DNA of 64,000 nt from Friedmanniella luteola (lineage in GTDB: Bacteria; Actinomycetota; Actinomycetes; Propionibacteriales; Propionibacteriaceae): NCBI RefSeq assembly GCF_900105065.1, contig NZ_LT629749.1, forward strand, positions 124,001 to 188,000. Direction: 5' to 3'. Of the stretch, positions 33,715-52,545 are shown piece after piece. The notes beneath the pieces were generated by a model. That model was not told the DNA's origin. It did no database searches and was given only the letters and a program-made list of their open reading frames with translations. The translations under genes were made by a program, and so were the position numbers. Numbering within the stretch: the first letter of the stretch is position 1; every line of letters begins with the position of its first letter.

Positions 33715-34374
33715 TCAGGTCACGAGACCGGACTGGTAGGCGATGACGACCAGCTGTGCGCGGTCGCGGGCGCCGAGCTTGGTCATGGCGCGGCTGACGT
33801 GGGTGCGGGCGGTGGCGGGGCTGATGTAGAGGCGTCGGCCGATCTCGTCGTTGTTCAGCCCTTGGCCGATCAGGGCGAGGATCTCGCGTTCGCGGTCCGT
33901 GAGCTCGACCAGGCCCGGGTTGGTGCCGGTTGACTGTGGGCCGGGCCGGGCGCGGAGGCTGTCGATGACCCGGCGGGTGACGGTGGGGGAGAGCAGCGAC
34001 TCTCCGGCGGCGGCGAGGCGAACAGCTCGGATCAGGTCAGCGGGTTCGGCGTCCTTGATGAGGAACCCGGCGGCCCCGGCCCGCAGGGCGGCGAAGACGT
34101 GCTCGTCGGACTCAAAGGTGGTGAGCACGACGACCCGGACGGCCGCCAGGGTGGGGTCGGCCGCGATCTGCCGAAGGGCGCTGATGCCGTCCAGGACGGG
34201 CATCCGGATGTCCATCAGGATGACGTCGGGTGGACAGCGTCGGGTGAGTTCGAGGGCCTGCTGGCCGTTCTCGGCCTCCCAGGCCAGCTGCAGGTCGTCC
34301 TCGGACTCCAACAGGGTCCGCAGTCCCAGCCGGATCAGCTGCTGGTCATCAGCCAGACCGACGGTGATGCTCAC
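33715..34374 (-). CDS. NarL/FixJ-family response regulator
   Basis: A 219-residue response regulator. The receiver domain has the acidic pair in VGLADDQQL, the phosphoacceptor Asp in VILMDIRMPVLDG, and the conserved Thr and Lys in VVLTTFE and FLIKDAEP. The LuxR-type helix-turn-helix follows: LTDREREILALIGQGLNNDEIGRRL, then TARTHVSRAMTKLG. It overlaps the histidine kinase gene (ATGA). It is divergent from the flavocytochrome locus, which it most likely controls. Confidence 0.95.
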   Translation of the reverse strand: MSITVGLADDQQLIRLGLRTLLESEDDLQLAWEAENGQQALELTRRCPPDVILMDIRMPVLDGISALRQIAADPTLAAVRVVVLTTFESDEHVFAALRAGAAGFLIKDAEPADLIRAVRLAAAGESLLSPTVTRRVIDSLRARPGPQSTGTNPGLVELTDREREILALIGQGLNNDEIGRRLYISPATARTHVSRAMTKLGARDRAQLVVIAYQSGLVT

Positions 34375-35654
34375 GGGCGTGCCGCCGGCTCGGCGGGCTC
34401 AGCAGGCGTCGGCGTATCGGGGCGCTTGGCCGCGGGTAGCTCGGCGCGGATCCGGAAGCCGCGCTCGGGCAGCGGGCCGACGACGACGCTGCCGCCGACG
34501 GCTCGGGCCCGAGCGCGCATCCCGGCGATGCCGCTGCCCTCGACAGGGGTGCTCCGGCCCGGCCGGCCGTCGTCGAGGACCTCCACGACCAGCAGAGAAT
34601 CCTCGCTGGTGATGGACACGGTGATCGCCGCGTCGGGGGTGGCGTGTCGAACGACGTTCGTCAGCCCCTCCTGAGCGATCCGCAGTGCGGCGTGCTGGAC
34701 GGCGACCGGCAGCAGCTGCAGCTGGTCGGTGGCCGGGCGGGTGTAGTAGACCGTCCGGCCGGCGGCCCGAAGTGCAGCAACGAGGTTGTCCAGCCCGGCG
34801 AGGCCGGCCGAACCGGTCGGTGGCTCGACGGCAACGGTCCCCGTCGGGATGTCGGCCAGTGCGTCACCGCGCAGGGTCGCCAGGGCGCTGCCCAGCTCGG
34901 CGAGGGCCTGCTTGCTCGTGCCCCTGATGGCTTCCAGTGACGGACGCAACTGGTCGGGGCGCTTCTCCAGCAGGTGCAGGGCGACGCCAGCCTGCATGTT
35001 GATCACCGCGAGGGAGTGCCCGACCACGTCGTGCACTTCCCGGGCGATCTGCAGCCGTTCCTCGTCGGCGTGGCGACGGCGCTCGGCGACGGCGTCGCGG
35101 CGTCGGGCGTCGCGCCGGGTGGTGAGGACGAGGCCGATCAGCCCGGGCAGCAGGATGCCGGCAGTGCCGAGCACCACCGCGAGGTAGAGGCCGGGGTCGT
35201 CCAGACCGGCGTAGGGCCGGGTCCAGAAGCCGGCGGAGAGGGCGACCGGCACGGCCAGCAGGAGCAGCAGGAGCTGGCGGGGCGGGTAGCGGGTCATCAG
35301 CGTGTGCACGGCGAGTGCGGGCCCCAGCAGCACCAGGGCGTACGGCCCGCCCGCCAGCAGGAACATCGCCATGGTCGCCAGGACGCCGACGTAGGCGACG
35401 CGGGGGGCGGTACGGCGGAGGGCCAGGGCGCCGACCAACCCGAGCGTGGCCAAGAACTGGAGCCAGTCGATGGTGTCAGGGAAGCCGCCACCACGACCGG
35501 GTCCTCCGTCCCCAGGACCGTCACTGCCCCGGCCTGTCCGCAGGTCGCGCCGGTTGTCGAAGTCGGGCAGGTGGATGGTGGTCAATGAGAGGAATCCGAC
35601 CGCCAACCCCAACGCTGCGTCCTCCACGACGCGAGGCAGGTGGAGGGTGGGCAT
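34371..35654 (-). CDS. Sensor histidine kinase (HisKA_3 family)
   Basis: A 427-residue kinase. About six membrane segments occupy residues 1-180 with little extracytoplasmic sequence. The dimerisation motif with the phosphoacceptor His is REVHDVVGHSLAVI, and the C-terminal ATPase domain has the N-box-like ALRIAQEGLTNVVRHA and GSGIAGMRARA. This is the usual partner of NarL-type regulators. A Gly/Pro/Asp-rich segment near residue 40 is likely an extracytoplasmic loop. The stimulus is unknown. Confidence 0.93.
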   Translation of the reverse strand: MPTLHLPRVVEDAALGLAVGFLSLTTIHLPDFDNRRDLRTGRGSDGPGDGGPGRGGGFPDTIDWLQFLATLGLVGALALRRTAPRVAYVGVLATMAMFLLAGGPYALVLLGPALAVHTLMTRYPPRQLLLLLLAVPVALSAGFWTRPYAGLDDPGLYLAVVLGTAGILLPGLIGLVLTTRRDARRRDAVAERRRHADEERLQIAREVHDVVGHSLAVINMQAGVALHLLEKRPDQLRPSLEAIRGTSKQALAELGSALATLRGDALADIPTGTVAVEPPTGSAGLAGLDNLVAALRAAGRTVYYTRPATDQLQLLPVAVQHAALRIAQEGLTNVVRHATPDAAITVSITSEDSLLVVEVLDDGRPGRSTPVEGSGIAGMRARARAVGGSVVVGPLPERGFRIRAELPAAKRPDTPTPAEPAEPAARP

Positions 35655-35742
35655 CAGTGTCGTCTTCCTGAGGGTTGCGGAGGGTGGGCCGGGCGCGCTC
35701 CCACAACCCTAGGCGGCTGGACCCCCGCCGTGCGTCCGCTCG

Positions 35743-35765
35743 CTGACGTAGTGGCCGTACGTCAG
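35743..35765. promoter_or_regulatory. Palindrome in the divergent kinase/flavocytochrome promoter
   Basis: CTGACGTA (35743-35750) and TACGTCAG (35758-35765) are perfect 8-base inverted arms separated by 7 bases. They lie midway between the kinase start and the flavocytochrome start. A second, smaller palindrome, CATCC-GAGC-GGATG, follows near 35786-35799. This is a plausible binding site for the adjacent NarL-type regulator. Confidence 0.55.
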
Positions 35766-35833
35766 TGGGCGTAGCCGAGGATCATCATCCGAGCGGATGT
35801 GTGAGCAGCACCGGCCCGGACAGGGTTGCTGCC

Positions 35834-35905
35834 ATGACCGCCCACCACATCTTGGCTACCGGCGGGCCGACCCACCAGGCCGGCCCGTTGGTGGTGGCCC
35901 GATGA
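35834..35905 (+). CDS. Possible short leader peptide overlapping the flavocytochrome start
   Basis: An ATG at 35834 opens a 23-codon frame (MTAHHILATGGPTHQAG, then PLVVAR) whose TGA overlaps the ATG of the flavocytochrome gene. The arrangement could couple translation of the downstream gene. No strong ribosome site precedes it and the peptide has no known relatives to my knowledge, so it may be chance. Confidence 0.25.
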   Translation: MTAHHILATGGPTHQAGPLVVAR

Positions 35906-37311
35906 CCGCCGTGCTCGCCGCGCCACCGGCGGTACCGATGCACACGCGGGACACCCGCCTGGACGCTGAGGCTCGAGGTGACAGCGCGGTCCGGCTGGTC
36001 TTCTCAGTCGCGCTCTGGGCAGGACTCCTGCTCGTCACCTACTGGTGGGATCGCGACGGCGGGGTCACCGACCTGACGGGCTGGGAGAGCGGTCTCACCT
36101 CGGTCGGCCGGCTGACCGGTTTGTGGTCGAGTGATCTGCTGCTCGTGCAGGTGCTGCTGATGTCGCGACTGCCGCCGCTGGAGAACGCTTTCGGCCGTGA
36201 CCGGTTGGCGCGGATCCACCGGGTGATCGGGTTCCTCTCCTTCGACCTGATGATCGCCCACATCGTGCTCATCATCGGTGGCTACGCATCCGGCCGGTGG
36301 ACGGCGGTGCCCGGCACCACCTGGGATCTGCTGACCAACTACGGCGGCGTGCTGCTGTCGGCTGCCGGCACGGTCTGCCTGGTCGTGGTCGTGGTGACCA
36401 GCATCAAAGCGGCGCGGCGGAAGTTGCGGTACGAGTCGTGGCACCTGATCCACCTCTACGCCTACCTGGGCGTCGGCCTGGCCCTGCCGCACCAGCTCTG
36501 GACCGGGCAGGAATTCCTCTCCTCGCTCGGCCGCACCGCCTACTGGTGGACCCTGTGGGGTGCGGCAGCAGGCGCCGTGCTCGTGTGGCGCCTCGGCCTG
36601 CCCCTCATGCGCAGCCTGCGATTCGAGCTGCGGGTCGCCCGGGTGGTGCGCGAGTCCTCCGACGTCGTCTCCGTGCACCTGACCGGGCGCCGGCTCGACC
36701 GGCTGCCGGTCCGGGCCGGGCAGTTCCTGACCGTCCGCTTCCTCACCTCGCCGGGCTGGACCCGGGGCAACCCGTTCTCACTGTCAGCGGCCCCGGACGG
36801 CCGCAGCCTGCGGATCACCGCCAAGGCGCTGGGGGAGGGGAGCGCTCGCTTGGCGCACCTGCAGCCTGGAACCCGGGTGCTGTTCGAGGGCCCGTACGGG
36901 CGCCTCAGCAGCCGCACTCGCACGCAGCGGAAGGTGCTGCTCGCCGGTGCAGGTGTCGGCATCACACCGCTGCGCGGTCTGGCTGAAGGCCTCGACTACG
37001 CGCCGGGCGAAGCGGTCCTGCTGCACCGCTACACCGGCCAGCCGCTGTTCGCCCCCGAGCTCAGCGCTCTCGCCCACGAGCGCGGCCTGCAGGTGCTCGC
37101 CCTACCCGGCCCGCGAGCGGCCCCCGGGTCCGTCCTCGGTCCGACTGCAGGCCGGGACGAGCTCCGCGCCCTCCAGTCCTGGATCCCGGATCTAGCCGAG
37201 CGTGACGTTTTCCTGTGCGGACCGACGGCCTGGACCGAAGGCGTGGAACGCCTCGTCCTCGCGGCCGGCGTCCCCGCCGACCGCATCCACACCGAGAGCT
37301 TTGGCTGGTGA
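35902..37311 (+). CDS. Ferric-reductase-like transmembrane flavocytochrome (first copy)
   Basis: A 469-residue protein. Six or so membrane helices in the first half carry histidines suited to bind haem (RIHRVIGF, MIAHIVLII, YESWHLIHLYAY, LPHQLW). The second half is a ferredoxin-reductase-like FAD/NAD(P) module with NPFSLSA and the nucleotide motif LLAGAGVGITPLRGL, ending ESFGW. It would pass electrons from cytosolic NAD(P)H across the membrane. A possible 23-codon leader (35834-35905) overlaps its ATG. The FMN-binding protein gene follows directly. Confidence 0.9.
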   Translation: MTAVLAAPPAVPMHTRDTRLDAEARGDSAVRLVFSVALWAGLLLVTYWWDRDGGVTDLTGWESGLTSVGRLTGLWSSDLLLVQVLLMSRLPPLENAFGRDRLARIHRVIGFLSFDLMIAHIVLIIGGYASGRWTAVPGTTWDLLTNYGGVLLSAAGTVCLVVVVVTSIKAARRKLRYESWHLIHLYAYLGVGLALPHQLWTGQEFLSSLGRTAYWWTLWGAAAGAVLVWRLGLPLMRSLRFELRVARVVRESSDVVSVHLTGRRLDRLPVRAGQFLTVRFLTSPGWTRGNPFSLSAAPDGRSLRITAKALGEGSARLAHLQPGTRVLFEGPYGRLSSRTRTQRKVLLAGAGVGITPLRGLAEGLDYAPGEAVLLHRYTGQPLFAPELSALAHERGLQVLALPGPRAAPGSVLGPTAGRDELRALQSWIPDLAERDVFLCGPTAWTEGVERLVLAAGVPADRIHTESFGW

Positions 37312-37316
37312 CCCTG

Positions 37317-37826
37317 ATGAGACGCATCGTCCTGTGGTTGGCCTCGACCATCACCATCGTGGTGCTGCTGTTCGGCTACCACACCTCGACCAACGACATC
37401 TCGGCCGCGACGGCGCCGAGCAGCGCGAGCAGCCCGGCCACCACGAGCCCGTCGGCGAGCTCGCCCTCGACCAGCCCGAGCAGCTCCTCGCCCTCGACCA
37501 GCCCGAGCAGCTCCTCGCCCTCGACCAGCTCGAGCAGCAGCTCCGCCGCCCCCACGACCTACGACGGATCGGTCGCCTCGACCCGCTGGGGCCCGGTGCA
37601 GGTCCAGATCATCGTCACCGCCGGGAAGATCACCGAGGTCACGGTGCTGCAGCAGCCGAGCGGCAACCCCAAGGACGCCGAGATCAACGACTACGCGCTG
37701 CCGGTCCTGGTGCAGGACACCCTGACGGCCCAGAGCGCGGACATCGACATGGTCAGTGGAGCGACGGTGACCAGCACCGGCTACGTGCAGTCGCTCCAGG
37801 CCGCTCTCGACGAGGCCGGGCTGTGA
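37317..37826 (+). CDS. Membrane-anchored FMN-binding domain protein
   Basis: A 169-residue protein with one N-terminal membrane segment (residues 4-20), a Ser/Thr/Pro-rich linker to about residue 80, and an FMN_bind domain to the end. The flavinylation motif SGATVTS lies near residues 147-153; Thr 150 is the expected covalent FMN site. The linker is encoded by a 27-bp tandem repeat at 37461-37541. An in-frame GTG at 37308 overlapping the previous stop is an alternative start. It would accept electrons outside the membrane from the flavocytochrome. Confidence 0.9.
   Translation: MRRIVLWLASTITIVVLLFGYHTSTNDISAATAPSSASSPATTSPSASSPSTSPSSSSPSTSPSSSSPSTSSSSSSAAPTTYDGSVASTRWGPVQVQIIVTAGKITEVTVLQQPSGNPKDAEINDYALPVLVQDTLTAQSADIDMVSGATVTSTGYVQSLQAALDEAGL
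37461..37541 (+). repeat. 27-bp coding tandem repeat in the FMN-protein linker
   Basis: Three consecutive 27-base units encode the nine-residue pattern SPSTSPSSS. The first two are identical and the third diverges at its end. The repeat lengthens a flexible extracytoplasmic linker and is likely variable in copy number between strains. Confidence 0.75.
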
Positions 37827-38617
37827 GCGCCGTCGTCGGTGTGGCGGGCCTCGGTTCGCACCGCCGTGTCGAGCAGGTGATGGGGATGCCGGTCAGCGTT
37901 GCGCTCCGCGGCCACCACAGCACGACCCCTGACGGAGAAGCCGCGTGGCAGGCAGTCGTCGAGGAGCTGCGCGACGTCGACCGGGTGTTCAGCACCTACC
38001 GGCCCGACTCGATGATCAGCCGACTCGACCGTGGCGAGCTCACTCTCCAACAGTGCCCTGCCGAGGTCACCGAGGTGCTGGTGCTCGGCAGCGATGCCGA
38101 GGATCAGTCGGGCGGGGCCTTCTCGATCACCCTGCCCGACAGCAACGGACGGCCAAGGCTCGATCCGAGCGGCGTGGTCAAGGGCTGGGCGGTGGAACGC
38201 GCCGCACGCCACCTCGCCGGGCTCGAGGACACCGACTTCTGCCTGTCCGCCGGCGGCGACATGGTCTGCCGGGTCACCGACCCGGGCCGGCCGGCTTGGC
38301 GGGTGGGCATCGAGCATCCGCTCGACCCCACCTCCTTGGTCGCCGTCGTCCCTGTCCGTTCCGGTGCTGTCGCCACCTCCGGCGCTCGCCATCGCGGCCA
38401 GCACCTTCTGGACGCCCGCACCGGCCGCCCCGCCTCCGGGGTCGCCTCCGTCACGGTGATCGACCGCTCGCTCACCTGGGCTGACATCGACGCGACCGCC
38501 GCGTACGCCCACGGACCGCGGGCCGCTGAGTGGCTGCAAGGACGAGGCCGGACCGCGCTGGTGGTCTGGCCCGACGCCACCACGACGGTTCTCGACGGAC
38601 GAATCCCCGCCCGATGA
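37823..38617 (+). CDS. apbE: FAD:protein FMN transferase (ApbE family)
   Basis: ApbE attaches FMN covalently to a Thr of FMN_bind proteins. The 264-residue product shows DPSGVVKGWAVERA, FCLSAGGDMVC, LLDARTGRPASGVASVTVI and the metal-binding WADIDATAAY. The GTG at 37823 overlaps the stop of its probable substrate gene (GTGA). No signal peptide is visible, although the substrate domain is predicted outside the membrane. Flavinylation before export or an unusual export route are both possible. Confidence 0.92.
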   Translation: MSAVVGVAGLGSHRRVEQVMGMPVSVALRGHHSTTPDGEAAWQAVVEELRDVDRVFSTYRPDSMISRLDRGELTLQQCPAEVTEVLVLGSDAEDQSGGAFSITLPDSNGRPRLDPSGVVKGWAVERAARHLAGLEDTDFCLSAGGDMVCRVTDPGRPAWRVGIEHPLDPTSLVAVVPVRSGAVATSGARHRGQHLLDARTGRPASGVASVTVIDRSLTWADIDATAAYAHGPRAAEWLQGRGRTALVVWPDATTTVLDGRIPAR

Positions 38618-38672
38618 CCCGGTCTTCGACCCATCCCGACCACCCACCCCACACACCGAAAGGTCCCGTCTC

Positions 38673-39011
38673 ATGACCCCTCCCCTCCTGCCGCTCGAGG
38701 TGCACGGCCACCACGGCTTCGACGGAGGCTTCTCCGTCCTGCCGTTCCTGGGCAGCTTCTTCCTCCTGCTGGTCCTGCTCGCCGGACTGGCCGCCTTCTA
38801 CCTGTGGCGCCAGGGCAAGCTCACCTTGCCCACCTTCGCCACCCGCCGCTCACCAGAAGACGCGGCCAAGCAGATCCTCGCCGACCGCTTCGCTCGTGGG
38901 GACATCAGCACCGACGAGTTCATGGAGCGGTCCAGCACCCTCAACTGGACTCCGGGCAGCGACACCACCGCACCGCGCCAGCCCCGCAAGAAGCGCCGTC
39001 CAGGCCGCTGA
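38673..39011 (+). CDS. Small membrane protein with SHOCT domain
   Basis: A 112-residue protein with one strong membrane helix (about residues 27-44, FLGSFFLLLVLLAGLAAFY). A cytoplasmic SHOCT motif follows (AKQILADRFARGDISTDEFMERSSTL) and then a Lys/Arg-rich tail. SHOCT modules are short oligomerisation or tethering units. The His/Gly-rich N-terminus (VHGHHGFDGG) is unusual. It lies between apbE and the second flavocytochrome set. Confidence 0.8.
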   Translation: MTPPLLPLEVHGHHGFDGGFSVLPFLGSFFLLLVLLAGLAAFYLWRQGKLTLPTFATRRSPEDAAKQILADRFARGDISTDEFMERSSTLNWTPGSDTTAPRQPRKKRRPGR

Positions 39012-39200: not shown

Positions 39201-39559
39201 CGGTCATCCAGGAGCGGCGGCCCTCGGCGGAGGCCCGGGCGGACGGCTTCCACTCGGTCGCCGCAGCTGTGGGTGCCGCCACGCGCCGGGCCGTGCGCCG
39301 TCCGACCAGCCGCAGGCAGAACGTGGTGCTCACCCTGGCCGCCACCGTGCTGGGGCTCTGGTTCGGGTTGGGCGCACCAGCCGTCTCACCGGTGGCGCCT
39401 CCTGTCCCGGCGGTCTCGAGCCCCGCCCTGATCGGTCAGGCCGATGCTCCAGCCGATACCGCCGGCCCGGCCGATCCTCTGCCGCCGGCTGGTCGAGGTC
39501 GCGGAGACGGTCAGTTCGGACGCCTGGACGCGTTCGACCAGCAGGGTCGGCGCCGATGA
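39197..39559 (+). CDS. Hypothetical single-span membrane protein
   Basis: A 120-residue protein with a charged N-terminus, one hydrophobic segment (about residues 47-66, VVLTLAATVLGLWFGLGAP) and a Pro/Ala-rich tail. I do not recognise the family. Its ATG overlaps the short ORF before it and its TGA overlaps the flavocytochrome ATG after it. The three are therefore translationally coupled, and it may be an accessory subunit. Confidence 0.6.
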   Translation: MTVIQERRPSAEARADGFHSVAAAVGAATRRAVRRPTSRRQNVVLTLAATVLGLWFGLGAPAVSPVAPPVPAVSSPALIGQADAPADTAGPADPLPPAGRGRGDGQFGRLDAFDQQGRRR

Positions 39560-40962
39560 CCTCCCCCAGCATCGAACCGCAGTCCTACCGGCAGGCGCCC
39601 GCATCCGACGTGCCCGACGACGTCGAGCCTCGGCTCTACACCCCCGTACCGGGACCCAGCCGAAAGCGGCTACGCCCGCGGCAGGTCCTGCTGGCGATCC
39701 AGCTGGGGGCCGGCGCGGTCGCCGTCTGGCCCCTGGCCCTCGCACTCCAGGCTCCACAGCCGCTCCAGCTCGCCCCTCTGCTGGCCCACGTGGCCGGCAT
39801 GTTGGCCGGCTTTGGCGTCGTCGTGCTGCTCGCGCTGATGTCCCGCGCGCCCGCGCTGGAACGGGGTGTCGGGGCCGACGTCCTCGCCCGCTGGCACGGC
39901 AAGGGCGGACGGGTGGTCGTCGGCCTGGTCCTCGTGCATGCCTGGGCCGCGGTGCTGGCCTGGCAGCAGTCGCGTCAGGAGAACGCGCTCGTCGCCCTCG
40001 GCCAGGTGCTGGGACTGCCAGGGCTGGTCGCAACCAGCCTGGGGACCCTGCTGCTGCTCAGCGTGGCGGCCGGGTCCATCCGCGCGGCCCGCCGTCGGCT
40101 CTCCTACGAGAGCTGGCACAGCCTGCACCTGATCACCTACCTCGCGGTCGCGCTGACGTTCCTGCACCAGCTCGCCGGACCCGACCTGGCCGGGCACCGC
40201 GTCATGCAGGTCGGCTGGTCGCTGCTCTACACGTTCGTGTTCGCGCTGCTGCTGCGATACCGGGTACTGGCTCCGCTGCAGCAGGCAGCCCGTCACCGCC
40301 TCCGGGTCAGGTCTGTTGTCGCCGAAGGGCATGGCGTGGTCAGCATCGAGGTCGAAGGTGAGCACCTGGACGAGCTGCAGGCCGAGGCTGGCCAGTTCTT
40401 CCGGTGGCGGTTCCTCACCCCGGACACCTGGCTCACCGCCCACCCCTTCTCCCTCTCGGCCCCCCCGACCAAGGACCGGCTCCGGCTCACCGTGAAAGCC
40501 CTCGGCACTGGCAGCGCCCAGCTGCAGAGCGTCGCCGTCGGCACCTGGGTGGTGGCCGAGGGCCCCTACGGGGCGATGACAGCGGCTCGCCGAACCCAAC
40601 GTCACGTCCTCTTGATCGCCGGTGGCGTCGGCATCACCCCGATGCGGGCCCTGTTTGAGACCCTGCCCCTGGCGGCCGGGCAGGACCTCACGCTCCTCTA
40701 CCGGGCCCGCACCCTCGACGATGTGCCGTTCAGAGGCGAGCTCGAAGCCATCGCCCGCGACCGCGGGGCCCGAGTGCGGTACCTGCTCGGCATCGACCCC
40801 GACTGCCTGACCGCTGGCGGTCTGCTGGCTGAAATACCCGACCTCACTGACCGCGACGTCTACCTCTGCGGGTCACTGCGCATGGCCGACGCGGTCCGCG
40901 CAGCCGTCTTGGAGGCGGGGCTTCCGCCCGAGCGGCTGCACGAAGAGAGGTTCGCCTTCTGA
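39556..40962 (+). CDS. Ferric-reductase-like transmembrane flavocytochrome (second copy)
   Basis: A 468-residue paralogue of the protein at 35902. The membrane half has haem-suited histidines in RWHGKGGRVV, LVLVHAWAAVL, YESWHSLHLITY and FLHQLAG. The C-terminal half has HPFSLSAPP, the FAD/NAD(P) motif LIAGGVGITPMRAL and a final HEERFAF. Having two such electron-transfer proteins around one FMN protein suggests different donors or acceptors. It overlaps the preceding membrane protein gene by four bases. Confidence 0.9.
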   Translation: MTSPSIEPQSYRQAPASDVPDDVEPRLYTPVPGPSRKRLRPRQVLLAIQLGAGAVAVWPLALALQAPQPLQLAPLLAHVAGMLAGFGVVVLLALMSRAPALERGVGADVLARWHGKGGRVVVGLVLVHAWAAVLAWQQSRQENALVALGQVLGLPGLVATSLGTLLLLSVAAGSIRAARRRLSYESWHSLHLITYLAVALTFLHQLAGPDLAGHRVMQVGWSLLYTFVFALLLRYRVLAPLQQAARHRLRVRSVVAEGHGVVSIEVEGEHLDELQAEAGQFFRWRFLTPDTWLTAHPFSLSAPPTKDRLRLTVKALGTGSAQLQSVAVGTWVVAEGPYGAMTAARRTQRHVLLIAGGVGITPMRALFETLPLAAGQDLTLLYRARTLDDVPFRGELEAIARDRGARVRYLLGIDPDCLTAGGLLAEIPDLTDRDVYLCGSLRMADAVRAAVLEAGLPPERLHEERFAF

Positions 40963-41076: not shown

Positions 41077-42249
41077 ATGAACAAGACGCTCTCCCTCACG
41101 GCCGGTCTGCTGACGGCAACGGTCCTGACCGTCGCCGGCTGCAGCTCCGACACCGCCGGCTCGACCTCTTCCGCAGCGCCGTCGTCCTCGACCGCCCCCC
41201 AGACTGGCGGGCCGCCCAGCGGAGGCGGTCCTGGCGGCGGCATGGGTGAAGTCACCGCAGTCAACCTCAACACCGATGGCGCCAGCCCAGGCGGGGCGAA
41301 CACCGCCGCCGTGGTCGAGGCGACCAACGCGTTCCTCGCCACCCTCGACGACCCGACGAAGGACATCGCCGAGTACGACTTCACCGACAACAAGTCACGC
41401 CAGACCTGGTCGAACTTCCCCGCGACCACGGTGGCGCGGCCGGGGGTGGAACTGTCGGCCCTCACCGCCGACCAGCTCCAGGCGGTCTACGCAGTCCTGG
41501 AGGTGGCGCTCAGCGAGGCCGGAGCCACCCAGGATGCCGACATCCAGAAGGCGGACGACTACCTGAACAGTCTCGGCGGTCAGGGCGCCGACGGCTTCGG
41601 AGCCCTCAAGGACTACTACGTCGCCGTCTACGGGACGCCGTCGGAGACCAGCCCGTTCATGATCCAGTTCGGCGGTCACCACCTGGCGCGCACCTTGACC
41701 TACAACGGCGACAAGGTCAGCCAGACGCCGCAGTTCGTGGGTTCTGAACCAGTCTCGTTCGAGGTCGACGGCACGACCGTCGAGCCGGTGAAGGCGGAGT
41801 CGACCAGCATGTTCGGCATCATGTCCGCCCTGACGGCCGACCAGCGCACGGCCGCTGAGATCACCTCCGGCACCTTCGACGACCTCTTGATGGGCCCCGG
41901 TCAGGACTCCGGCAACTTCCCCACCGCCGAGGGGCTCTCGGTCTCAGAGCTGGACGCTGACCAGAAGGCGGCGGTGATGACGGCGGTCGAGGCCTACGCC
42001 GGGGATCTCGCTACCGACGCCAGCACCAAGCTGTTGGCCAAGTACGAGGCCGAGCTGGACCAGACCACGATCGGCTGGTCCAACAACACCGGACCGACCG
42101 ACGAGAGCAGCTACATCCGCATCGACGGCCCGAGCGTGTGGATCGAGTTCATCAACACCCGTAGCCGGAGCACCCCCGACATCCACTTCCACACCGTCTA
42201 CCGCGACAAGACCAACGATTACGGCAGCACCAAGCCCGCGACGAGCTGA
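41077..42249 (+). CDS. DUF3500 domain lipoprotein (first copy)
   Basis: A 390-residue secreted lipoprotein: signal peptide with lipobox VAGC, a Ser/Pro/Gly-rich linker, then a DUF3500-type domain. Conserved blocks shared with the protein at 44009 are WSNFP, MIQFGGHHLA, PGQDSG, RIDGPSVWIEF and HFHTVYRDKTNDYG. The repeated His residues (GGHH, HFH) could bind a metal or act in redox chemistry; that is inference. The function of DUF3500 is not known. The HupE/UreJ-like gene follows. Confidence 0.82.
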   Translation: MNKTLSLTAGLLTATVLTVAGCSSDTAGSTSSAAPSSSTAPQTGGPPSGGGPGGGMGEVTAVNLNTDGASPGGANTAAVVEATNAFLATLDDPTKDIAEYDFTDNKSRQTWSNFPATTVARPGVELSALTADQLQAVYAVLEVALSEAGATQDADIQKADDYLNSLGGQGADGFGALKDYYVAVYGTPSETSPFMIQFGGHHLARTLTYNGDKVSQTPQFVGSEPVSFEVDGTTVEPVKAESTSMFGIMSALTADQRTAAEITSGTFDDLLMGPGQDSGNFPTAEGLSVSELDADQKAAVMTAVEAYAGDLATDASTKLLAKYEAELDQTTIGWSNNTGPTDESSYIRIDGPSVWIEFINTRSRSTPDIHFHTVYRDKTNDYGSTKPATS

Positions 42250-42337
42250 GGCGCCCATCCTCACCGCACAACGCCGCCGCCGCGGCCTCCCCACACCGTG
42301 GGGGGGCCGGGCTGCAGGCCTGATCGCCTGCCTGCTG

Positions 42338-43591
42338 ATGGCGTGCACCTCGATCCTGCTGATGCCCGGACCCGCGAGTGCACACCCGCTGAGCAGCACT
42401 GCAGTGCTGCTCGACGTCGGGTCCCACGAGGTCATCGGCCAGGTCCAGCTGCCCATCGACCGGCTCGCCATCGCCGTGGACCAACCCGGTCTCACCACGG
42501 AGATCGCCGTCCAACCCAGCAAGATCGAGGAGTTCCGCCGGTACGTGGCCGAGCACACAGCGGCTACGGGAACCACCGACGGAGAGCCTTGGGACGTTGC
42601 CGTTGCCAACGGGCGGGTGCAGACCCTCGACGGCGTCGACCACCTCGTCTACGACCTGACACTGCGACCGCCGGATGGCGTGGTGGCGAACTTCCGCCTG
42701 AGCTACGACGCCATCGTGACCCGACTCGTCTCGCACCGCGTCTTCGTGTCGGCGCGTCCAGCGAGCACCCAGGCCTACACCGCTGTCGGGCTGATCGACT
42801 GGGAGTCCCAGGACCTCACCGTGCCTGCGGCGGGAGCGACCGCCGATCAAGGCTTCCTGCCCGCGGTGCGGTTGGGCGCGCACCACATCACCGAGGGCGC
42901 GGACCACCTGCTGTTCGTCCTGATGTTGCTGCTTCCCGCTCCTCTGCTGGCCCGCCGAGGCCGGTGGGAACGCACCGAGAACCTGCGCCGCAGCAGCTGG
43001 CGTGTCGTCCACGTCGTCACTGCCTTCGCGGTCGGCCATTCGATCACCCTCGCCCTGGCCGCTCTCGGCTACGTCCACGCCCCCACGCGCGTGGTCGAGA
43101 GCATGATCGCCGTCTCGATCCTGGTCGCAGGTCTGCATGCCATCAAGCCGATCGTCCGGGGCGGGGACACCTGGATCGCCGCTGGCTTCGGACTGATGCA
43201 CGGCCTGGCCTTCGCCACCCTCCTCGGCCAGCTCGGCCTCGGCCGCGGCTCCCTCGTCACCGAGCTGCTCGGCTTCAATCTCGGCATCGAGCTCACGCAG
43301 CTGCTCGTCGTGACTCTGGTCATGCCGTCGCTGATGGTGCTCAGCCGCACCTCGGTCTACCCTGCGGCGAGAACGGTCCAGGCCGGCTCCGGCGTCCTCC
43401 TCGCCGCGGCCTGGCTGGCTGAACGCACGACCCTGCTGAGGACGAATCCGCTCGCACCTCTCCCGGACGCGCTCGTGGCTCATCCGCTCGTCGTGGTCGC
43501 CAGCCTCGCTCTCGCGGCGACCATCGCCTGGGCAGTGCCCGGCTGGCGAGTCAACAGGATGGCACCTGCTGACCGTCCAACCGCCCCGTGA
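42338..43591 (+). CDS. HupE/UreJ-family membrane protein (first copy)
   Basis: A 417-residue protein: signal segment, an extracytoplasmic beta-rich domain to about residue 175, then about six or seven membrane helices. The family motif GAHHITEGADHLLFVLMLLLP holds His, Glu and Asp residues, and FGLMHGLAFA carries another His. HupE/UreJ proteins are predicted nickel or cobalt permeases. From ATG 42338 the signal peptide looks short. In-frame upstream codons add RRRRG and a hydrophobic stretch back to an ATC at 42257 preceded by GAGG, so the real start may be non-canonical. Confidence 0.85.
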   Translation: MACTSILLMPGPASAHPLSSTAVLLDVGSHEVIGQVQLPIDRLAIAVDQPGLTTEIAVQPSKIEEFRRYVAEHTAATGTTDGEPWDVAVANGRVQTLDGVDHLVYDLTLRPPDGVVANFRLSYDAIVTRLVSHRVFVSARPASTQAYTAVGLIDWESQDLTVPAAGATADQGFLPAVRLGAHHITEGADHLLFVLMLLLPAPLLARRGRWERTENLRRSSWRVVHVVTAFAVGHSITLALAALGYVHAPTRVVESMIAVSILVAGLHAIKPIVRGGDTWIAAGFGLMHGLAFATLLGQLGLGRGSLVTELLGFNLGIELTQLLVVTLVMPSLMVLSRTSVYPAARTVQAGSGVLLAAAWLAERTTLLRTNPLAPLPDALVAHPLVVVASLALAATIAWAVPGWRVNRMAPADRPTAP

Positions 43592-44008: not shown

Positions 44009-45274
44009 ATGAACACATCACCGAGCTCCAGCCCCCGTCCCGTCTCGCGGCGGTGGCTCCTGGGAGCGGTTCCCGTGGCTGCCGCCGTCATCGCCGGCTG
44101 CGGGAGCACCTCGACCACGTCGAGCTCGCCGACCACCTCGACCTCCGCCACCCCGTCGTCCTCCACGACAGCGACGGCCGACGGCGTGGCCGCCGCCGGC
44201 AGTGTGGCCGCCCTTGCGCAGGCCTTCTACCAGACGTTGACCGACGACCAGAAGCCGACGGTGCTGCTGGACTACACCCTGGACAGCGCCAAGCGCTGGT
44301 CGAACCTGCCGCAGGGGCTGCTGGCCGGCGGCATGGGCGGCGGCGCTGGAGCCGGCGGGCGCCCCTCGGGAGCCTCCGGGCAGCCGTCGGGCATGCCGAG
44401 CGGCGAGCCCGGTGGTGACGGCTCCGGTGCGCCCGGCGGTGGGGCCGGCGGTGGCAGCGGGTCCCGGGTCGGCATCGCCCTGGCCGACTTGAACGCGGAG
44501 CAGCTGGCCGCGTTCACCCCACTGCTGAAGGCCGCCACCGGTACCACGGCCGGGCTTGGCTACGAGGAAATTGAGTGGCAGCTCGCCGCGGACGACTACC
44601 TGGGCGCCAACGGCGGCGGGGACACCTACGGGCGCGGCCAGTTCTACGTGGCTCTGCTGGGCAGCCCGCAGGACACCGGCACCTGGGAGTTCCAGTTCGG
44701 CGGCCACCACCTCGCCGTCGCCAACACCTACACCGACGGGAAGCTGGCCGGCGCCACCCCGGCCTTCCGCGGGGTCGAGCCGAACACCGACTTCGAGCAG
44801 GACGGCACCAGCTACCCCGCCCCGCTGAAAGTGAAGGAGGCCGCCTTCCAGGCCCTGCTCGCCAGCCTGTCCACCGACCAGCAGACCAGCGCGAAGCTCT
44901 CCGACACCTTCACCGACCTCGTGCTCGGTCCCGGCCAGGACTGGGCGTTCCCCACCACCAAGGACGGCGTCCAGGTCTCCACCCTCACCGCCGACCAGAA
45001 GAAGCTCGTCCTCGCCGCGATCGCCACCTACGTCAACGACATCGCCGACGCCGACGCCAAGACGATCCTGGCCAGGTACCAGAGCGAGCTGGACGACACC
45101 TACCTCGCCTACTCCGGCACCACTGCCCTGACGGAGCAGAACGACTACGTCCGCGTCGACGGCCCGTCGGTGTGGATCGAGTTCTCCATGCAGCACGGCA
45201 TCGTGCTCTCGGGCAACCACCCGCACTCGGTGTGGCGCGACCGCACCACCGACTACGGCGGCACGAAGAGCTGA
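44009..45274 (+). CDS. DUF3500 domain lipoprotein (second copy)
   Basis: A 421-residue paralogue of the protein at 41077. The N-terminus has a Tat-like SRRWLLG motif and a lipobox IAGC, then a Ser/Thr-rich linker. The domain shows WSNLPQG, FQFGGHHLAVA, VLGPGQDW, RVDGPSVWIEF and HPHSVWRDRTTDYGG. It has a large Gly/Ser/Pro-rich insertion (about residues 105-150) absent from the first copy. A twin-arginine signal would imply folding or cofactor loading before export. The next gene starts within its stop codon. Confidence 0.82.
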   Translation: MNTSPSSSPRPVSRRWLLGAVPVAAAVIAGCGSTSTTSSSPTTSTSATPSSSTTATADGVAAAGSVAALAQAFYQTLTDDQKPTVLLDYTLDSAKRWSNLPQGLLAGGMGGGAGAGGRPSGASGQPSGMPSGEPGGDGSGAPGGGAGGGSGSRVGIALADLNAEQLAAFTPLLKAATGTTAGLGYEEIEWQLAADDYLGANGGGDTYGRGQFYVALLGSPQDTGTWEFQFGGHHLAVANTYTDGKLAGATPAFRGVEPNTDFEQDGTSYPAPLKVKEAAFQALLASLSTDQQTSAKLSDTFTDLVLGPGQDWAFPTTKDGVQVSTLTADQKKLVLAAIATYVNDIADADAKTILARYQSELDDTYLAYSGTTALTEQNDYVRVDGPSVWIEFSMQHGIVLSGNHPHSVWRDRTTDYGGTKS

Positions 45275-46734
45275 TGCACACCGCGACCCTCGTCCGGGGT
45301 TGCGTCGGGACCGGCTCCGTGAGGAGCCGGTCCCCGGCGCTGGTCCGGACCGTCCTGCTGGCGCTCGCGCTCGCGTGCGCCGCCGCGCTCCTCGCGGTGG
45401 CGGCACCGGCTGCCTCGGCCCACGTCGTGCCCACCTCCACGCTGCAGCTCGACGTCCGCGACGGCGTCATCGACGCCGCCCTCGCCATCCCGGTGACCGA
45501 CGTCGAGGCCGCTGTCGGGGTCGACCTCGGCGAGGGATCCCAGGCCGACATCGACGCCGAGGCGAGCAGCATCCGCACCTACCTGCAGGACCGCATCACC
45601 CTGATCAGCGACGACGGCACCCCGTGGACGATGACGGTCGGCGCGCTGACCGTGTCCGAGGCCGGTGACCAGCAGACGACCGGCATCTACCGGCAGCTCG
45701 AGACCACGCTCACCCTGACCCCTCCCGCCAGCACGGACGAACGCTCCTTCGACGTCGCCTTCACCGCCATCGTCGACAAGGTCGCCACCCACGTCGTGAT
45801 CGTGACCGTCCGCTCCGACTGGACGGCCCCCGACCTCACCAGCGCCTACCAGCTGGGCACCATCCACCGCGACACCGTCACCGGCGACGTCCAGGCCCTG
45901 CACGTCGGGCTCACCGGCGGCAGCGGCACGGCAGGCTTCTCCAGCATGGTCAGCCTCGGGATGCACCACATCGCCGAGGGCACCGACCACCAGCTGTTCC
46001 TGCTCACGCTGCTGCTCCCGGCCCCGCTGCTCGCCACCGGCAGACGGTGGGCCGGCGCCGTCGGACCGCGGGCAGCCGTCCGGCGCTTCGCCGGCATCAC
46101 CCTTGCATTCACCCTCGGCCACTCCGCCACCCTCGCCCTCGGCGCCCTCGGCGTCCCCGTCCCGCAACAGCTCGTCGAAGCCCTCATCGCCCTCAGCATC
46201 CTCGTCGCCGCGGTGCACGCGATCCGACCAGTCTTCCCCGGCCGAGAGGCCCTCGTCGCCGCCGGGTTCGGACTCGTCCACGGGCTCGCGTTCTCCGAGG
46301 CGCTACGCGAGCTCGACCTCAACGGCGGCCGGCTCGCCACCGCGCTCCTCGGCTTCAACCTCGGCATCGAAGCCATGCAGCTGATCGTCGTCGCCCTCGT
46401 CCTCCCGCCGCTGATCCTGCTGGCCCACGCCAACCGCTACTGTCAGCTCCGGGTGGTTGCGGCCCTCGCGACCGGCGTCGCCGCGCTCGGATGGCTCGGC
46501 GCACGCCTCGGCGTCGACAACCCCGTCGCCACTGCCGCTGACGAGCTCGGCGTCATCGTCCTACCGGTCGTCGCTGCACTCTGGCTGGCCGCGATCGCCA
46601 TCACCGTCAAGCAACACCTCGACGACCTCCACCGTCGCGACGCGGAAGTGCTCACCGACAGCCCTGTCACATCAATCGTCCAAGAGTCACCGATGACCGC
46701 AGGGGGCCCACCACGGCCTCATCTTTCGCGGTAG
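45274..46734 (+). CDS. HupE/UreJ-family membrane protein (second copy)
   Basis: A 486-residue paralogue of the protein at 42338. It has a clear signal peptide (LLALALACAAALLAVAAPAASAH), an extracytoplasmic domain, then the membrane part with GMHHIAEGTDHQLFLLTLLLP and FGLVHGLAFSEA. The C-terminus adds a cytoplasmic tail of about 45 residues. The ATG overlaps the last base of the DUF3500 stop (TGATG), so the pair is made together. The transported substrate is not known. Confidence 0.87.
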   Translation: MHTATLVRGCVGTGSVRSRSPALVRTVLLALALACAAALLAVAAPAASAHVVPTSTLQLDVRDGVIDAALAIPVTDVEAAVGVDLGEGSQADIDAEASSIRTYLQDRITLISDDGTPWTMTVGALTVSEAGDQQTTGIYRQLETTLTLTPPASTDERSFDVAFTAIVDKVATHVVIVTVRSDWTAPDLTSAYQLGTIHRDTVTGDVQALHVGLTGGSGTAGFSSMVSLGMHHIAEGTDHQLFLLTLLLPAPLLATGRRWAGAVGPRAAVRRFAGITLAFTLGHSATLALGALGVPVPQQLVEALIALSILVAAVHAIRPVFPGREALVAAGFGLVHGLAFSEALRELDLNGGRLATALLGFNLGIEAMQLIVVALVLPPLILLAHANRYCQLRVVAALATGVAALGWLGARLGVDNPVATAADELGVIVLPVVAALWLAAIAITVKQHLDDLHRRDAEVLTDSPVTSIVQESPMTAGGPPRPHLSR

Positions 46735-46832
46735 AGACTGGTCGGGTGCCTGCCCGCCGGCGCTGGAGAGGTCGGTGAGAACGCGATGTCGGCACCGCGT
46801 TCAACCCTCGAAGTACGTGGTGGCACCTCAGA

Positions 46833-49376
46833 ATGGGCTCCGTGATCAGGCCTGCGTCAGAGCCGTCCTCCGTCTCGACCGATGCCTCGCCGAGAGTCTC
46901 AGGGTTGTCCAGCCGGGAGGTGGAGGAGCGCCGTCGCCGGGGTGAGGGCAATAGGGCGGTCAGCGCTTCCTCCCGAAGTTGTGCGCGGATCCTGCGGTCC
47001 AACGTCTTCAACCTCTACAACAGCATCCTGTTCACCATCGGGGCGGCGTTGCTTGCGCTCGGCCGATACAGCGACGCCTTCATCAGCGTGGCGATCGGAC
47101 TGTTGAACGCGGTGATCAGCGCCGTGCAGGAGATCCGCGCCAAGCGTCAGCTCGACCGGCTGCAGCTGCTGGGTCGCACCGCAGTGGTGGTGGTCCGCGA
47201 CGGCCGGGACACCGAGGTTCTGCCGGAGAGCATCGTGCGCGGTGACGTCGTCCGGGTGCGTCCCGGCGACCAGTTGGTCGTGGACGGGCCGGTCCTCGAG
47301 GGTGCCGTCGAGGTCGACGAGTCCCTGCTGACGGGGGAGTCGGTGGCGCAGCTTCGGGCCGTCGGTGAGGACCTGCTCTCGGGCAGTCACAGCGTAGGTG
47401 GAGAGGGGCTCCAGCTGGCTCGCGACGTGGGGGCCGCCAGCTACGCGAGCCGTCTGACAGCCGAGGCCCGTAGGACCGTCACTGACACGACCCCACTGCA
47501 ACGGCAGGTTGCTTTCTGCGTCCGCTTGGTCATGGTCGTCGTGGTCTTGATGAGCGGCGCCATCTTGCTGCAGGCCGAATTGGAGGGCGTCACCCTGGTG
47601 CGGGTCGTGCAGAGCGCCGCGGTGCTGTCCGGTCTGGTGCCCTACGGGTTGTTCTTCCTGATCGTGCTCGCCTACACAGCGGGTGCGGTCACCTCGTCCC
47701 GACGCGGCGCACTCGTGCAACGGGTGAACGCCGTCGAGTCGGTGAGCAACGTCGACGTCCTGTGCACCGACAAGACCGGCACCCTGACCACCGGACGGCT
47801 CACCGTCGCCGAGGTCGTGCCTGTCGGCGGGCAGGACGCCGACCTGGTCAGTGCGGCGTTGGGCTCGATGGCGCGCAGCACCGCCGCGGCGAACCTCACT
47901 AGCACGGCGCTGGCCGCGCACCTGCCCGGGAAGCCCTGTCAGGTTATGGAGGAGGTGCCGTTCAGCTCTTCGCTGCGGTGGAGCGCTGTCCGTACCGACA
48001 CAGCGGTGTGGGTCCTCGGTGCGCCGGAGGCTCTCGCCGCCTCCCTCCAGGGTCCTGACCTGACCGGTGAGGTGCAGCGGCGTACTGCTCAGGGGCTGCG
48101 GGTGCTCGTCTTCGCCCGCGCAGCCGACGACGCTGGTCTGCGCGACCAGGACGGACATCCCGTGCTGCCCACGCTGGTGCCGCTAGCCGTGGTGGCTCTG
48201 GCCGACGAGCTGCGTCCCGACGTGCCCGAGACGATCGCCCGGCTGCAGCAGGAGGGCATCGGGTTGTTGGTGCTCTCCGGTGACGACCCCGACACCGTCG
48301 CCGCCCTCGCCACCCGTGCCAGCCTGGCGGTCACCGAGCCGGTGCACGCCGCGCACCTGGGTGAGCTCACTGACGCCGAGCTCGACGCGGTCGTGGCGAG
48401 GAGCACCGTCTTCGGCCGGGTCGCCCCCGACCAGAAGGAGCGCATCGTCACCTCCCTGCGCCGGCAGGGCCACTACGTGGCCATGGTGGGCGACGGGGTC
48501 AACGACGCTCACGCGTTGAAAGCCGCTCAGGTCGGGGTGGCGATGCGGAGCGGCAGCTCCGTCGCGCGGGACGTCGCCGACGTCATCCTGCTCGAGGACT
48601 CCCTCGCCGCGCTGCTCCCTGCCCGCCGGGAGGGCCGTCGCATCGTCGCTGGCATCGCCATCTCGGCGCAGGTGTTCCTCACCCGGGTGGCCACCCAGGC
48701 GCTGATCATCGTCACGGTCACCATGCTCGGGCTGGGCTTCCCCTACTCACCGGCCCAGACCGGGCTCACGCTGTTCACCGTTGGCCTGCCGACCCTCTTC
48801 CTGACCGCCTGGGCCCGGCCCAGGGCGCCCGACCCTCACCTACTGCTCAACCTGGCCCGCTTCGTCTTGCCCGCCGCCGTGGTCACGGCGGGGTTCGCCG
48901 TCGCCGTCTACACCTTCCTCTACACCAGCGTGACCGCCGGCTTCGACGACCCGGACATCCGGGACAGGATGGTCGCCGAGTTCGAGGCGTACACCGGCCT
49001 CACCTACGGCGTCGACGCCGACTTCGTCCAGACGGCGGCCGCCCTCGGAGCCCAGACCGGCCTGTCGACCTTCGTGTCACTGGCCTCCATCCTCCTCATC
49101 CTCTTCCTCGAACCGCCCGCCCGCTTGTTCGCCGCCTGGACCACGACCAGCCCCGACAAGCGGCCGGTGGTGCTCGTCGCCGTGCTGCTGGCGGGACTGG
49201 TCACCGCGCTGGTGGTGCCCGCTCTCCGCAACTACTTCGGGCTCACCCAACCCGTCGGGATCATCTACGAGATCGCCTTGCCCCTCCTCCTGCTCTGGTT
49301 CCTGGCCCTGGGCGCCGCCTACCGCTTCCGCGTCATGGACCGGCTGCTGGGCCTGCAGGACCTGCGGAAGGGCTGA
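46833..49376 (+). CDS. Cation-transporting P-type ATPase (CtpE-like)
   Basis: An 847-residue P-type ATPase. The actuator motif LLTGES is near residues 165-170, the phosphorylated Asp in CTDKTGTLT near 313, and the hinge motif GDGVNDAHALK near 552. The fourth membrane helix has SGLVPYG in place of the PEGL or CPC of Mg/Ca or heavy-metal pumps. The helix order and missing N-terminal metal-binding domain fit the actinobacterial CtpE group, reported as Ca-related in mycobacteria. About ten membrane segments are present. It may serve the metal-handling locus before it. Confidence 0.88.
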   Translation: MGSVIRPASEPSSVSTDASPRVSGLSSREVEERRRRGEGNRAVSASSRSCARILRSNVFNLYNSILFTIGAALLALGRYSDAFISVAIGLLNAVISAVQEIRAKRQLDRLQLLGRTAVVVVRDGRDTEVLPESIVRGDVVRVRPGDQLVVDGPVLEGAVEVDESLLTGESVAQLRAVGEDLLSGSHSVGGEGLQLARDVGAASYASRLTAEARRTVTDTTPLQRQVAFCVRLVMVVVVLMSGAILLQAELEGVTLVRVVQSAAVLSGLVPYGLFFLIVLAYTAGAVTSSRRGALVQRVNAVESVSNVDVLCTDKTGTLTTGRLTVAEVVPVGGQDADLVSAALGSMARSTAAANLTSTALAAHLPGKPCQVMEEVPFSSSLRWSAVRTDTAVWVLGAPEALAASLQGPDLTGEVQRRTAQGLRVLVFARAADDAGLRDQDGHPVLPTLVPLAVVALADELRPDVPETIARLQQEGIGLLVLSGDDPDTVAALATRASLAVTEPVHAAHLGELTDAELDAVVARSTVFGRVAPDQKERIVTSLRRQGHYVAMVGDGVNDAHALKAAQVGVAMRSGSSVARDVADVILLEDSLAALLPARREGRRIVAGIAISAQVFLTRVATQALIIVTVTMLGLGFPYSPAQTGLTLFTVGLPTLFLTAWARPRAPDPHLLLNLARFVLPAAVVTAGFAVAVYTFLYTSVTAGFDDPDIRDRMVAEFEAYTGLTYGVDADFVQTAAALGAQTGLSTFVSLASILLILFLEPPARLFAAWTTTSPDKRPVVLVAVLLAGLVTALVVPALRNYFGLTQPVGIIYEIALPLLLLWFLALGAAYRFRVMDRLLGLQDLRKG

Positions 49377-52534: not shown

Positions 52535-52545
52535 GGTGTTCGCCT

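What the first reader, a model, noticed from the sequence alone, without database searches (positions are those of the whole stretch)
33715..49376. A flavin-based electron-transfer locus joined to two DUF3500-HupE/UreJ cassettes
Two ferric-reductase-like flavocytochromes, a covalently flavinylated FMN protein and its ApbE lie beside two copies of a DUF3500 lipoprotein plus HupE/UreJ membrane protein pair. A P-type ATPase and a divergent two-component system flank them. FMN_bind-ApbE-ferric reductase systems are known as extracytosolic electron-transfer units. I know of no described link to DUF3500 or a doubled HupE/UreJ pair. Shared His motifs in DUF3500 (GGHH, H-x-H) and in HupE (HHIxEGxDH) suggest a metal that is reduced outside and then imported. 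The metal and the direction of flow are inference.
Basis: partly seen in the sequence, partly recalled or inferred. Interest (0 to 1): 0.85.

Follow-up and report, generated by a model that had tools for sequence, protein, structure and literature searches.

The report
Secreted DUF3500 and histidine-tipped permease cassettes
This bacterium carries two unequal copies of a gene pair seen in many bacteria: a secreted protein that looks like a metal enzyme, and a membrane metal carrier whose outer tip begins with a metal-gripping histidine; the flavin electron-transfer genes beside them are probably just neighbours.

Summary
The flavin link is mostly local: of 80 close DUF3500 loci 2 have the flavin cluster within 10 kb (my profiles found FMN_bind in 7 of 8 known clusters). 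The DUF3500-HupE link is strong, within one DUF3500 clade (99/98 support). Of those 80 loci 50 have HupE directly downstream, 3 rearranged or broken, 16 only an N-terminal-histidine domain without permease, 11 neither. Start codons mostly abut the DUF3500 stop, the partners co-vary (Mantel r 0.90), and the pairing is seen in nine phyla. The HupE N-domain model matches the copper-binding anglerase Ang-1 (9gce). DUF3500 keeps HH...E...HxH, shared with its one solved relative, dehydratase ApmL. Best reading: a secreted DUF3500 metalloprotein, probably an enzyme, served by a dedicated N-terminal-histidine metal-handling protein often fused to an importer. Metal, activity and direction are inferred. 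The two cassettes are diverged lineages, not a recent duplication. My paper searches showed no report of this pairing.

The parts
33715..34374 (-). LuxR-type response regulator
   Evidence: Pfam Response_reg + GerE
34371..35654 (-). HisKA_3 sensor kinase; two-component genes are the commonest class upstream of DUF3500 elsewhere
   Evidence: Pfam; HisKA in 8 and Response_reg in 7 of 93 upstream genes scanned
35902..37311 (+). Flavocytochrome 1, MsrQ-like/ferric-reductase TM (neighbouring flavin cluster)
   Evidence: Pfam Ferric_reduct 56.9 bits
37317..37826 (+). FMN_bind protein with SGATVT flavinylation-type motif
   Evidence: Pfam FMN_bind 44 bits; motif
37823..38617 (+). ApbE flavin transferase
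   Evidence: Pfam ApbE 133 bits
38673..39011 (+). Small membrane protein, weak SHOCT-like (DUF1707) hit below cut-off
39556..40962 (+). Flavocytochrome 2 with FAD- and NAD-binding domains
   Evidence: Pfam Ferric_reduct, FAD_binding_8, NAD_binding_1
41077..42249 (+). DUF3500-A, lipoprotein-type signal (LTVAGC, by eye), conserved H201 H202 E357 H370 H372 R376
   Evidence: Pfam 246 bits; model pLDDT 84.5; conservation
42338..43591 (+). HupE/UreJ_2-A: predicted signal peptide ending ASA, then His, then beta-sandwich domain and permease
   Evidence: Pfam 155 bits; model pLDDT 89.6, best PDB match 9gce Ang-1
44009..45274 (+). DUF3500-B, lipoprotein-type signal (VIAGC, by eye), different subclade from A
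   Evidence: Pfam 219 bits; tree
45274..46734 (+). HupE/UreJ_2-B, ASA|H N-terminus; start overlaps the DUF3500-B stop by one base
   Evidence: Pfam 129 bits; junction and translation
46833..49376 (+). P-type ATPase without CPx motif; a 54% match over 333 residues at the edge of the Actinoplanes sp. M2I2 locus
51473..56927 (.). GT2-GtrA, NAGPA, DUF4956, VTC, Cthe_2159 genes, also matched in L085 (57-70%)

Best explanation
The core is a two-gene unit for handling a metal outside the cytoplasm. A secreted or lipid-anchored DUF3500 protein carries a metal-type HH...E...HxH site and is probably a metal-dependent enzyme. Its partner, whose start codon usually abuts the DUF3500 stop, exposes an N-terminal histidine that grips a metal ion (Cu(II) or Ni(II) by analogy with anglerases) and exchanges that ion with DUF3500, most simply loading it. 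In most actinobacterial loci (34 of 39) and about half of the Bacteroidota ones (7 of 13) the His domain is fused to a HupE/UreJ permease, which adds uptake; in 9 of 15 Acidobacteriota and 7 of 8 Verrucomicrobiota loci it stands alone. The window holds two diverged units in tandem beside an ordinary actinobacterial MsrQ-like flavinylation cluster. SHOWN by computation: pairing, abutting starts, clade restriction, N-terminal His after a predicted signal peptide, modelled folds, conserved residues, permease-free variants. INFERRED: metal binding, metal identity, exchange, enzyme activity, direction.
For: Pairing in 69 of 80 loci: 50 HupE directly downstream, 3 HupE rearranged or fragmentary, 16 His-domain only. 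In 54 of 69 tested junctions a start codon lies -3 to +5 from the DUF3500 stop, against 5-24 at nine shifted positions. DUF3500 and HupE distances correlate, r 0.90, 0 of 2000 permutations (53 pairs). All partnered DUF3500s in the tree fall on one side of one branch: 98 SH-aLRT with 116 rows, 99/98 with 73 rows. His at the alignment column after the predicted signal peptide in 40 of 42 HupE rows, 2 gaps, rows having been trimmed around such a motif, and in 10 of 10 His-only rows, 8 of the 16 loci plus two plasmid proteins. HupE-A N-domain matches 9gce, Cu-bound Ang-1, E 8.2e-5. H201, H202, H370, H372, R376 in 116 of 116 rows, E357 in 115. Only PDB match of DUF3500 with E <= 0.001: 9x86, ApmL dehydratase, E 5.8e-17, with GHH and HxH kept. 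A fungal DUF3500 is a proposed ring-opening dioxygenase (PMC12388069, PMC13094099, passages).
Against: No metal or activity was measured. 11 of 80 loci have neither partner (one, L105, ends at the contig edge). HupE/UreJ_2 often occurs without DUF3500: 0 of 11 other HupE loci read (10 of the order sample, one of the phylum sample) had it within about 10 kb. The ApmL title does not tell me whether it binds metal. The relation between the HPLS-type and HRLDEY-type His domains is weak by sequence (hhalign probability 30%); it rests on the HRLDEY type being fused to HupE in some Acidobacteriota.
Confidence: 0.47

Rival explanations
1. Capture and import: DUF3500 is an extracellular metal receptor or metal-chelate binder that passes the ion to the His-tipped domain, and HupE/UreJ imports it (Cu, Ni, Co or Zn). 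An anglerase-HupE importer with an added lipoprotein receptor.
For: HupE fused in 50 of 80 loci; Ang-2-HupE proposed as a metal-fishing importer (PMC12537917, section 8 part 1 read); both window DUF3500 copies have lipobox-like signals (by eye); the HupE N-domain also resembles zinc-binding ZrgA and PA4063; the genome has urease, a Ni enzyme.
Against: 16 of 80 loci and two alphaproteobacterial plasmid records, Komagataeibacter and Agrobacterium, keep DUF3500 plus a short His-domain protein without the permease; a third, Qipengyuania, is unclear because its annotated protein lacks a signal peptide. DUF3500 keeps a whole set of conserved W, R, Y, E, H residues, most shared with the biosynthetic enzyme ApmL, more than a receptor would seem to need.
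Confidence: 0.3
2. One reading: the flavin cluster passes electrons outward, reduces the metal, and HupE imports the reduced ion; the whole 33.7-49.4 kb stretch is one system.
For: Adjacent in the window and in Actinoplanes sp. M2I2, which has FRE, FMN_bind, ApbE, DUF3500, HupE and P-ATPase matches; FRE-FMN_bind-ApbE also lies about 1.5-4 kb past the pair in Actinokineospora terrae. 153 MsrQ-like clusters carry a VIT1-like iron transporter (PMC8238504, section 10 read).
Against: 2 of 80 loci and 0 of 15 further regions have it within 10 kb; [quoted passage not shown] the M2I2 locus also shares polyphosphate- and glycan-type genes, so adjacency may reflect one transferred island.
Confidence: 0.13
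3. Hitch-hiking: a secreted enzyme and a metal permease travel as a mobile pair for unrelated benefits.
For: Patchy distribution; HupE not found in the 6 same-genus genomes listed; DUF3500 homologues occur in 52 plasmid records.
Against: Abutting starts, co-variation, conserved pairing over nine phyla, and retention of only the His domain in permease-free loci, argue for a joint function.
Confidence: 0.08

Closest known systems
Ang-2-HupE/UreJ-2 anglerases (PMC12537917, Nat Commun 2025)
   Same: Signal peptide then N-terminal His, extracytoplasmic beta-sandwich, PF13795 permease; HupE-A N-domain best matches 9gce, the Ang-1 structure.
   Different: The main text does not mention DUF3500 (0 occurrences) and reports Ang-2 only from Actinomycetota; here His-domain proteins sit after DUF3500 in Bacteroidota, Bacillota, Deinococcota and others, and also occur without permease.
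MsrQ-like flavinylation clusters (PMC8238504, eLife 2021)
   Same: PF01794 protein with NAD-binding domain, FMN_bind protein, ApbE.
   Different: Two flavocytochromes, and DUF3500-HupE cassettes beside them; no HupE or DUF3500 in that paper's main text as whole words.
ApmL / Amc20, PDB 9x86 (title: dehydratase in amipurimycin biosynthesis)
   Same: DUF3500 fold and the GHH, E, HxH residues.
   Different: Biosynthetic enzyme by its title; the window's DUF3500s are secreted. Its own neighbourhood and its place in the tree were not looked at.
Fungal DUF3500 AN10530, 1,2,3,5-tetrahydroxybenzene ring opening (PMC12388069, PMC13094099 passages; primary paper not held)
   Same: Same Pfam family.
   Different: Fungal aromatic catabolism; activity proposed in the passages, data not seen by me.
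CutF-like proteins beside HupE/UreJ (PMC9973294, one passage)
   Same: Proteins with only His-rich motifs encoded beside HupE/UreJ.
   Different: A different family; DUF3500 is not mentioned in the passage.

Membership tests
Anglerase-HupE/UreJ-2 (Ang-2) | His as first residue after signal peptide | tested here: met
   Sequence ASA|H in both window proteins; 40 of 42 rows, 2 gaps. Cleavage judged from an A-x-A motif, not by a predictor and not measured.
Anglerase-HupE/UreJ-2 (Ang-2) | Extracytoplasmic beta-sandwich followed by PF13795 permease | tested here: met
   Copy A: model 89.6 pLDDT, Foldseek best 9gce E 8.2e-5; PF13795 155 bits in A, 129 in B. Copy B was not modelled.
Anglerase-HupE/UreJ-2 (Ang-2) | Second ligand Asp33 (numbered from His1) | tested here: inconclusive
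   Counting by hand from His1, HupE-A has Asp at 33, HupE-B has Gly; no alignment with the published Ang-2 sequence was made.
Anglerase-HupE/UreJ-2 (Ang-2) | Cu(II) binding at the His site | not testable with these tools
   Needs purified protein.
DUF3500 (PF12006) | Profile match over cut-off and fold of 9x86 | tested here: met
   246 and 219 bits against 27.2; Foldseek E 5.8e-17 for copy A.
DUF3500 enzymes (dehydratase or ring-opening) | Catalytic activity | not testable with these tools
   Only the shared conserved residues were seen.
MsrQ-like flavinylation cluster | PF01794 + FMN_bind with SGAT motif + ApbE | tested here: met
P1B heavy-metal ATPase | CPx-type motif and family cut-off | tested here: not met
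   No CPx-type motif; TIGR01525 239 bits against 346.

The most novel reading that the evidence does not exclude
DUF3500 plus an N-terminal-histidine domain is an undescribed extracytoplasmic metalloenzyme-and-metallochaperone system found in at least nine bacterial phyla, with the importer an optional fusion; some actinobacteria have further wired it to flavin-based electron export so that the metal is reduced in place.
Probability: 0.4. Interest if true: 0.8.

Novelty: new variant of a known kind. Interest (0 to 1): 0.6.

Why it matters
It gives a clade of a family of unknown function (DUF3500) a dedicated, testable partner, gives the newly described anglerase domains a cognate secreted protein, and shows a stand-alone N-terminal-His domain that matched no Pfam family above cut-off in the members scanned singly. 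The permease-free forms make it possible to ask whether these domains feed import or feed an enzyme outside the cell.

Tried and rejected
Flavin genes as part of the core: rejected on counts. Recent tandem duplication: rejected (38% identity, different subclades). P-ATPase as copper pump: not supported. Metal identity from Ni enzymes: urease present, NiFe hydrogenase not found, Ni-SOD not found but no control genome rang, so this does not discriminate.

Neighbour enrichment: among 93 upstream genes (of 98 listed) and 87 others (81 downstream genes and 6 added by hand) two-component families lead, the next families occur in 2-3 genes. For these lists 12 loci were skipped as near-duplicates, and loci where my gene caller missed DUF3500 (12, some in both sets) are absent.

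Papers: DUF3500 in 3 papers, passages of each read; HupE+UreJ 27 listed, two opened; PF12006/IPR021889 in 3, of which one is among the above, one opened and one seen in the listing only; AN10530 in 1; Amc20 and amipurimycin/ApmL searches gave nothing on this protein among the 20 of 73 and 8 of 337 rows listed; no HupE or DUF3500 in PMC11334425.

Errors and selections of mine: protein 8 was given out of frame and is not used. Partner labels come from my own HMMs; copies under 300 bits or with a broken frame (such as L143) and six sample loci whose domain came out too short are not in the tree; the 22 outside rows were chosen from the tree and about every second inside row was taken (51 of 94). 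The taxonomy helper placed Rhodococcus sp. IEGM 1409 (L098) in Cyanobacteriota; I counted it as Actinomycetota, giving 39 actinobacterial loci, 34 with HupE directly downstream. In the alphaproteobacterial plasmid record H2 (Pannonibacter) DUF3500 has no His-domain partner downstream. The chance estimate uses 20 FMN_bind clusters counted by hand over rounded genome sizes (160.2 Mb) and assumes full flanks.
Full report
OBSERVATION. On the minus strand lie a LuxR-type response regulator and a HisKA_3 kinase. On the plus strand follow flavocytochrome 1, an FMN_bind protein with an SGATVT motif, ApbE, a small membrane protein, flavocytochrome 2, DUF3500-A, HupE-A, DUF3500-B, HupE-B and a P-type ATPase. 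The genome is one contig of 4.7 Mb with a third DUF3500 elsewhere.

WHAT GOES WITH DUF3500. In a phylum sample 32 of 396 genomes have DUF3500. Of those 32, 5 have HupE_UreJ_2, adjacent to DUF3500 in 3 (the window's genome twice, G335, G383), while a flavocytochrome and FMN_bind gene beside it occur only in the window's genome (several genomes are in many contigs). So most DUF3500 is not HupE-linked. Of these 80, 50 have HupE directly downstream and 3 have it in another state (L111 short, L127 with one gene between, L132 upstream); 16 have a short protein with predicted signal peptide and N-terminal His but no permease (191-239 aa in the 8 with a called ORF); 11 have neither. In a class sample 39 of 394 genomes have a homologue of DUF3500-A at E 1e-15 or better. 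I read regions in 21 of these 39; HupE is adjacent in 9. None of the 15 regions fetched holds a flavin cluster; 7 of the 15 hold the pair, and three of these have the contig lengths of L097, L099 and L100, so they are probably repeats.

PHYLOGENY AND COUPLING. All partnered DUF3500s in the tree lie on one side of one branch: 98 SH-aLRT for 94 of 116 rows (60 HupE, 17 His-only, 17 without partner), and 99/98 in a careful tree of 73 rows. The 22 rows outside have no partner. Residues H201, H202, H370, H372 and R376 are in 116 of 116 rows and E357 in 115, whereas N113, D160, T330 and D377 are far commoner on the partnered side (for example D160 in 92 of 94 against 1 of 22). In 54 of 69 pairs an in-frame start lies -3 to +5 from the DUF3500 stop (30 at -3, 12 at 0, 12 at 1 to 5); nine shifted positions gave 5 to 24. 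DUF3500 and HupE distances over 53 pairs correlate at 0.90 (0 of 2000 permutations reach it). In the two loci with two usable pairs, the window and L101, the differences between the two copies run in parallel for both proteins (correlations 0.91 and 0.97).

THE HIS DOMAIN. The HupE-A model (pLDDT 89.6) has a strand-rich domain before the permease helices. Its best PDB match is 9gce, the Cu-bound Ang-1 domain of a HupE/UreJ-2 protein (E 8.2e-5), then ZrgA and PA4063, zinc-binding proteins. The paper on these anglerases (PMC12537917; abstract, passages and section 8 part 1 read) reports Kd values for Cu(II) of 74 nM (Ang-1) and 62 nM (Ang-2) and proposes that they fish metal for the permease; its main text does not mention DUF3500. 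Permease-free partners (HRLDEYLQ type) are fused to HupE in other Acidobacteriota, which links the two forms; direct profile comparison is weak. L118's protein matches no Pfam family above cut-off. The same arrangement appears in plasmid records of Spirosoma and Deinococcus (two-component genes, DUF3500, HupE), in Paenibacillus, and with short His-domain proteins in Komagataeibacter and Agrobacterium; Qipengyuania is unclear and Pannonibacter has none. Phyla seen with a partner: Actinomycetota, Bacteroidota, Acidobacteriota, Verrucomicrobiota, Gemmatimonadota, Ignavibacteriota, Pseudomonadota, Deinococcota and Bacillota, plus one cyanobacterial MAG.

DUF3500 ITSELF. The model of copy A (pLDDT 84.5, most core blocks above 90) has one PDB match with E <= 0.001, 9x86, titled dehydratase ApmL in amipurimycin biosynthesis; the next hit has E 0.19. 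The alignment keeps GHH, E and HxH. A fungal DUF3500 is a proposed ring-opening dioxygenase (PMC12388069 and PMC13094099, passages; the primary paper was not held). I infer an enzyme with a metal site.

THE FLAVIN CLUSTER. [quoted passage not shown] abstract, outline and section 10 read). Within 10 kb of the 80 DUF3500 loci they occur in 2: Actinoplanes sp. M2I2 (L085) and Actinokineospora terrae (L095); a ferric-reductase-like hit without FMN_bind is in L147 and a weak one in L098. Contig ends cut some flanks, so this is a lower bound. My profiles found FMN_bind in 7 of 8 known clusters. A rough chance estimate for 39 actinobacterial loci is 0.11, so 2 is somewhat more than expected, but L085 also matches the window's P-ATPase, GT2-GtrA, NAGPA, DUF4956, VTC and Cthe_2159 genes, which suggests one shared island rather than separate joinings. 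None of the 6 same-genus genomes listed has HupE.

MECHANISM. The constant part is DUF3500 plus a His-tipped domain; the permease is optional and the flavin cluster rare. The simplest reading is that the His domain supplies or exchanges the metal of a secreted DUF3500 enzyme, with import as a common addition (0.47). Capture-import (0.30), reduction-import (0.13) and hitch-hiking (0.08) remain.

NOVELTY. Three papers in the held library name DUF3500 and three name PF12006 or IPR021889; in the passages read none links it to HupE, and most subscription papers are not held. I rate it a new variant of a known kind.

Noticed in passing
window 42250-42340: HupE-A has no in-frame ATG, GTG or TTG before 42338, inside the signal peptide; the nearest upstream GTG (42298) is in another frame and is followed by a seven-G run. 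Base-call error, slipped tract or unusual start cannot be told apart.
   Followed up: partly
A7 (L116, L118, L121, L130, L137, L140, L144, L146, P0002, P0003): Stand-alone N-terminal-His domain (HRLDEYLQ...) with an EF-hand-like DxDxDG loop; the members scanned singly (L118, P0002, P0003) matched no Pfam family above cut-off.
   Followed up: partly
L104, L107: Acidimicrobiales loci with DUF3500 followed by a YceI protein instead of HupE, and a YHYH protein upstream (shown for L104; two YHYH members among the 93 upstream genes).
   Followed up: no
L127:11080-12117: Intradiol-dioxygenase-like protein encoded between DUF3500 and HupE in an Ignavibacteria MAG.
   Followed up: no
G000:C1 1027076-1027981 and 1033362: The genome's third DUF3500 (unpartnered side of the tree) lies about 5 kb from the urease alpha gene.
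   Followed up: no
L087: Winogradskya consettensis carries DUF3500-HupE-DUF3500-HupE-DUF3500 in a row.
   Followed up: no
L073, L074: HupE genes with ASA|H or AWA|H N-termini and no DUF3500, beside 1640-1687 aa ORFs, in two genomes of the window's family.
   Followed up: no
window 51473-56927: GT2-GtrA, NAGPA, DUF4956, VTC and Cthe_2159 genes matched in Actinoplanes sp. M2I2 at 57-70% identity, suggesting a larger transferred island.
   Followed up: partly
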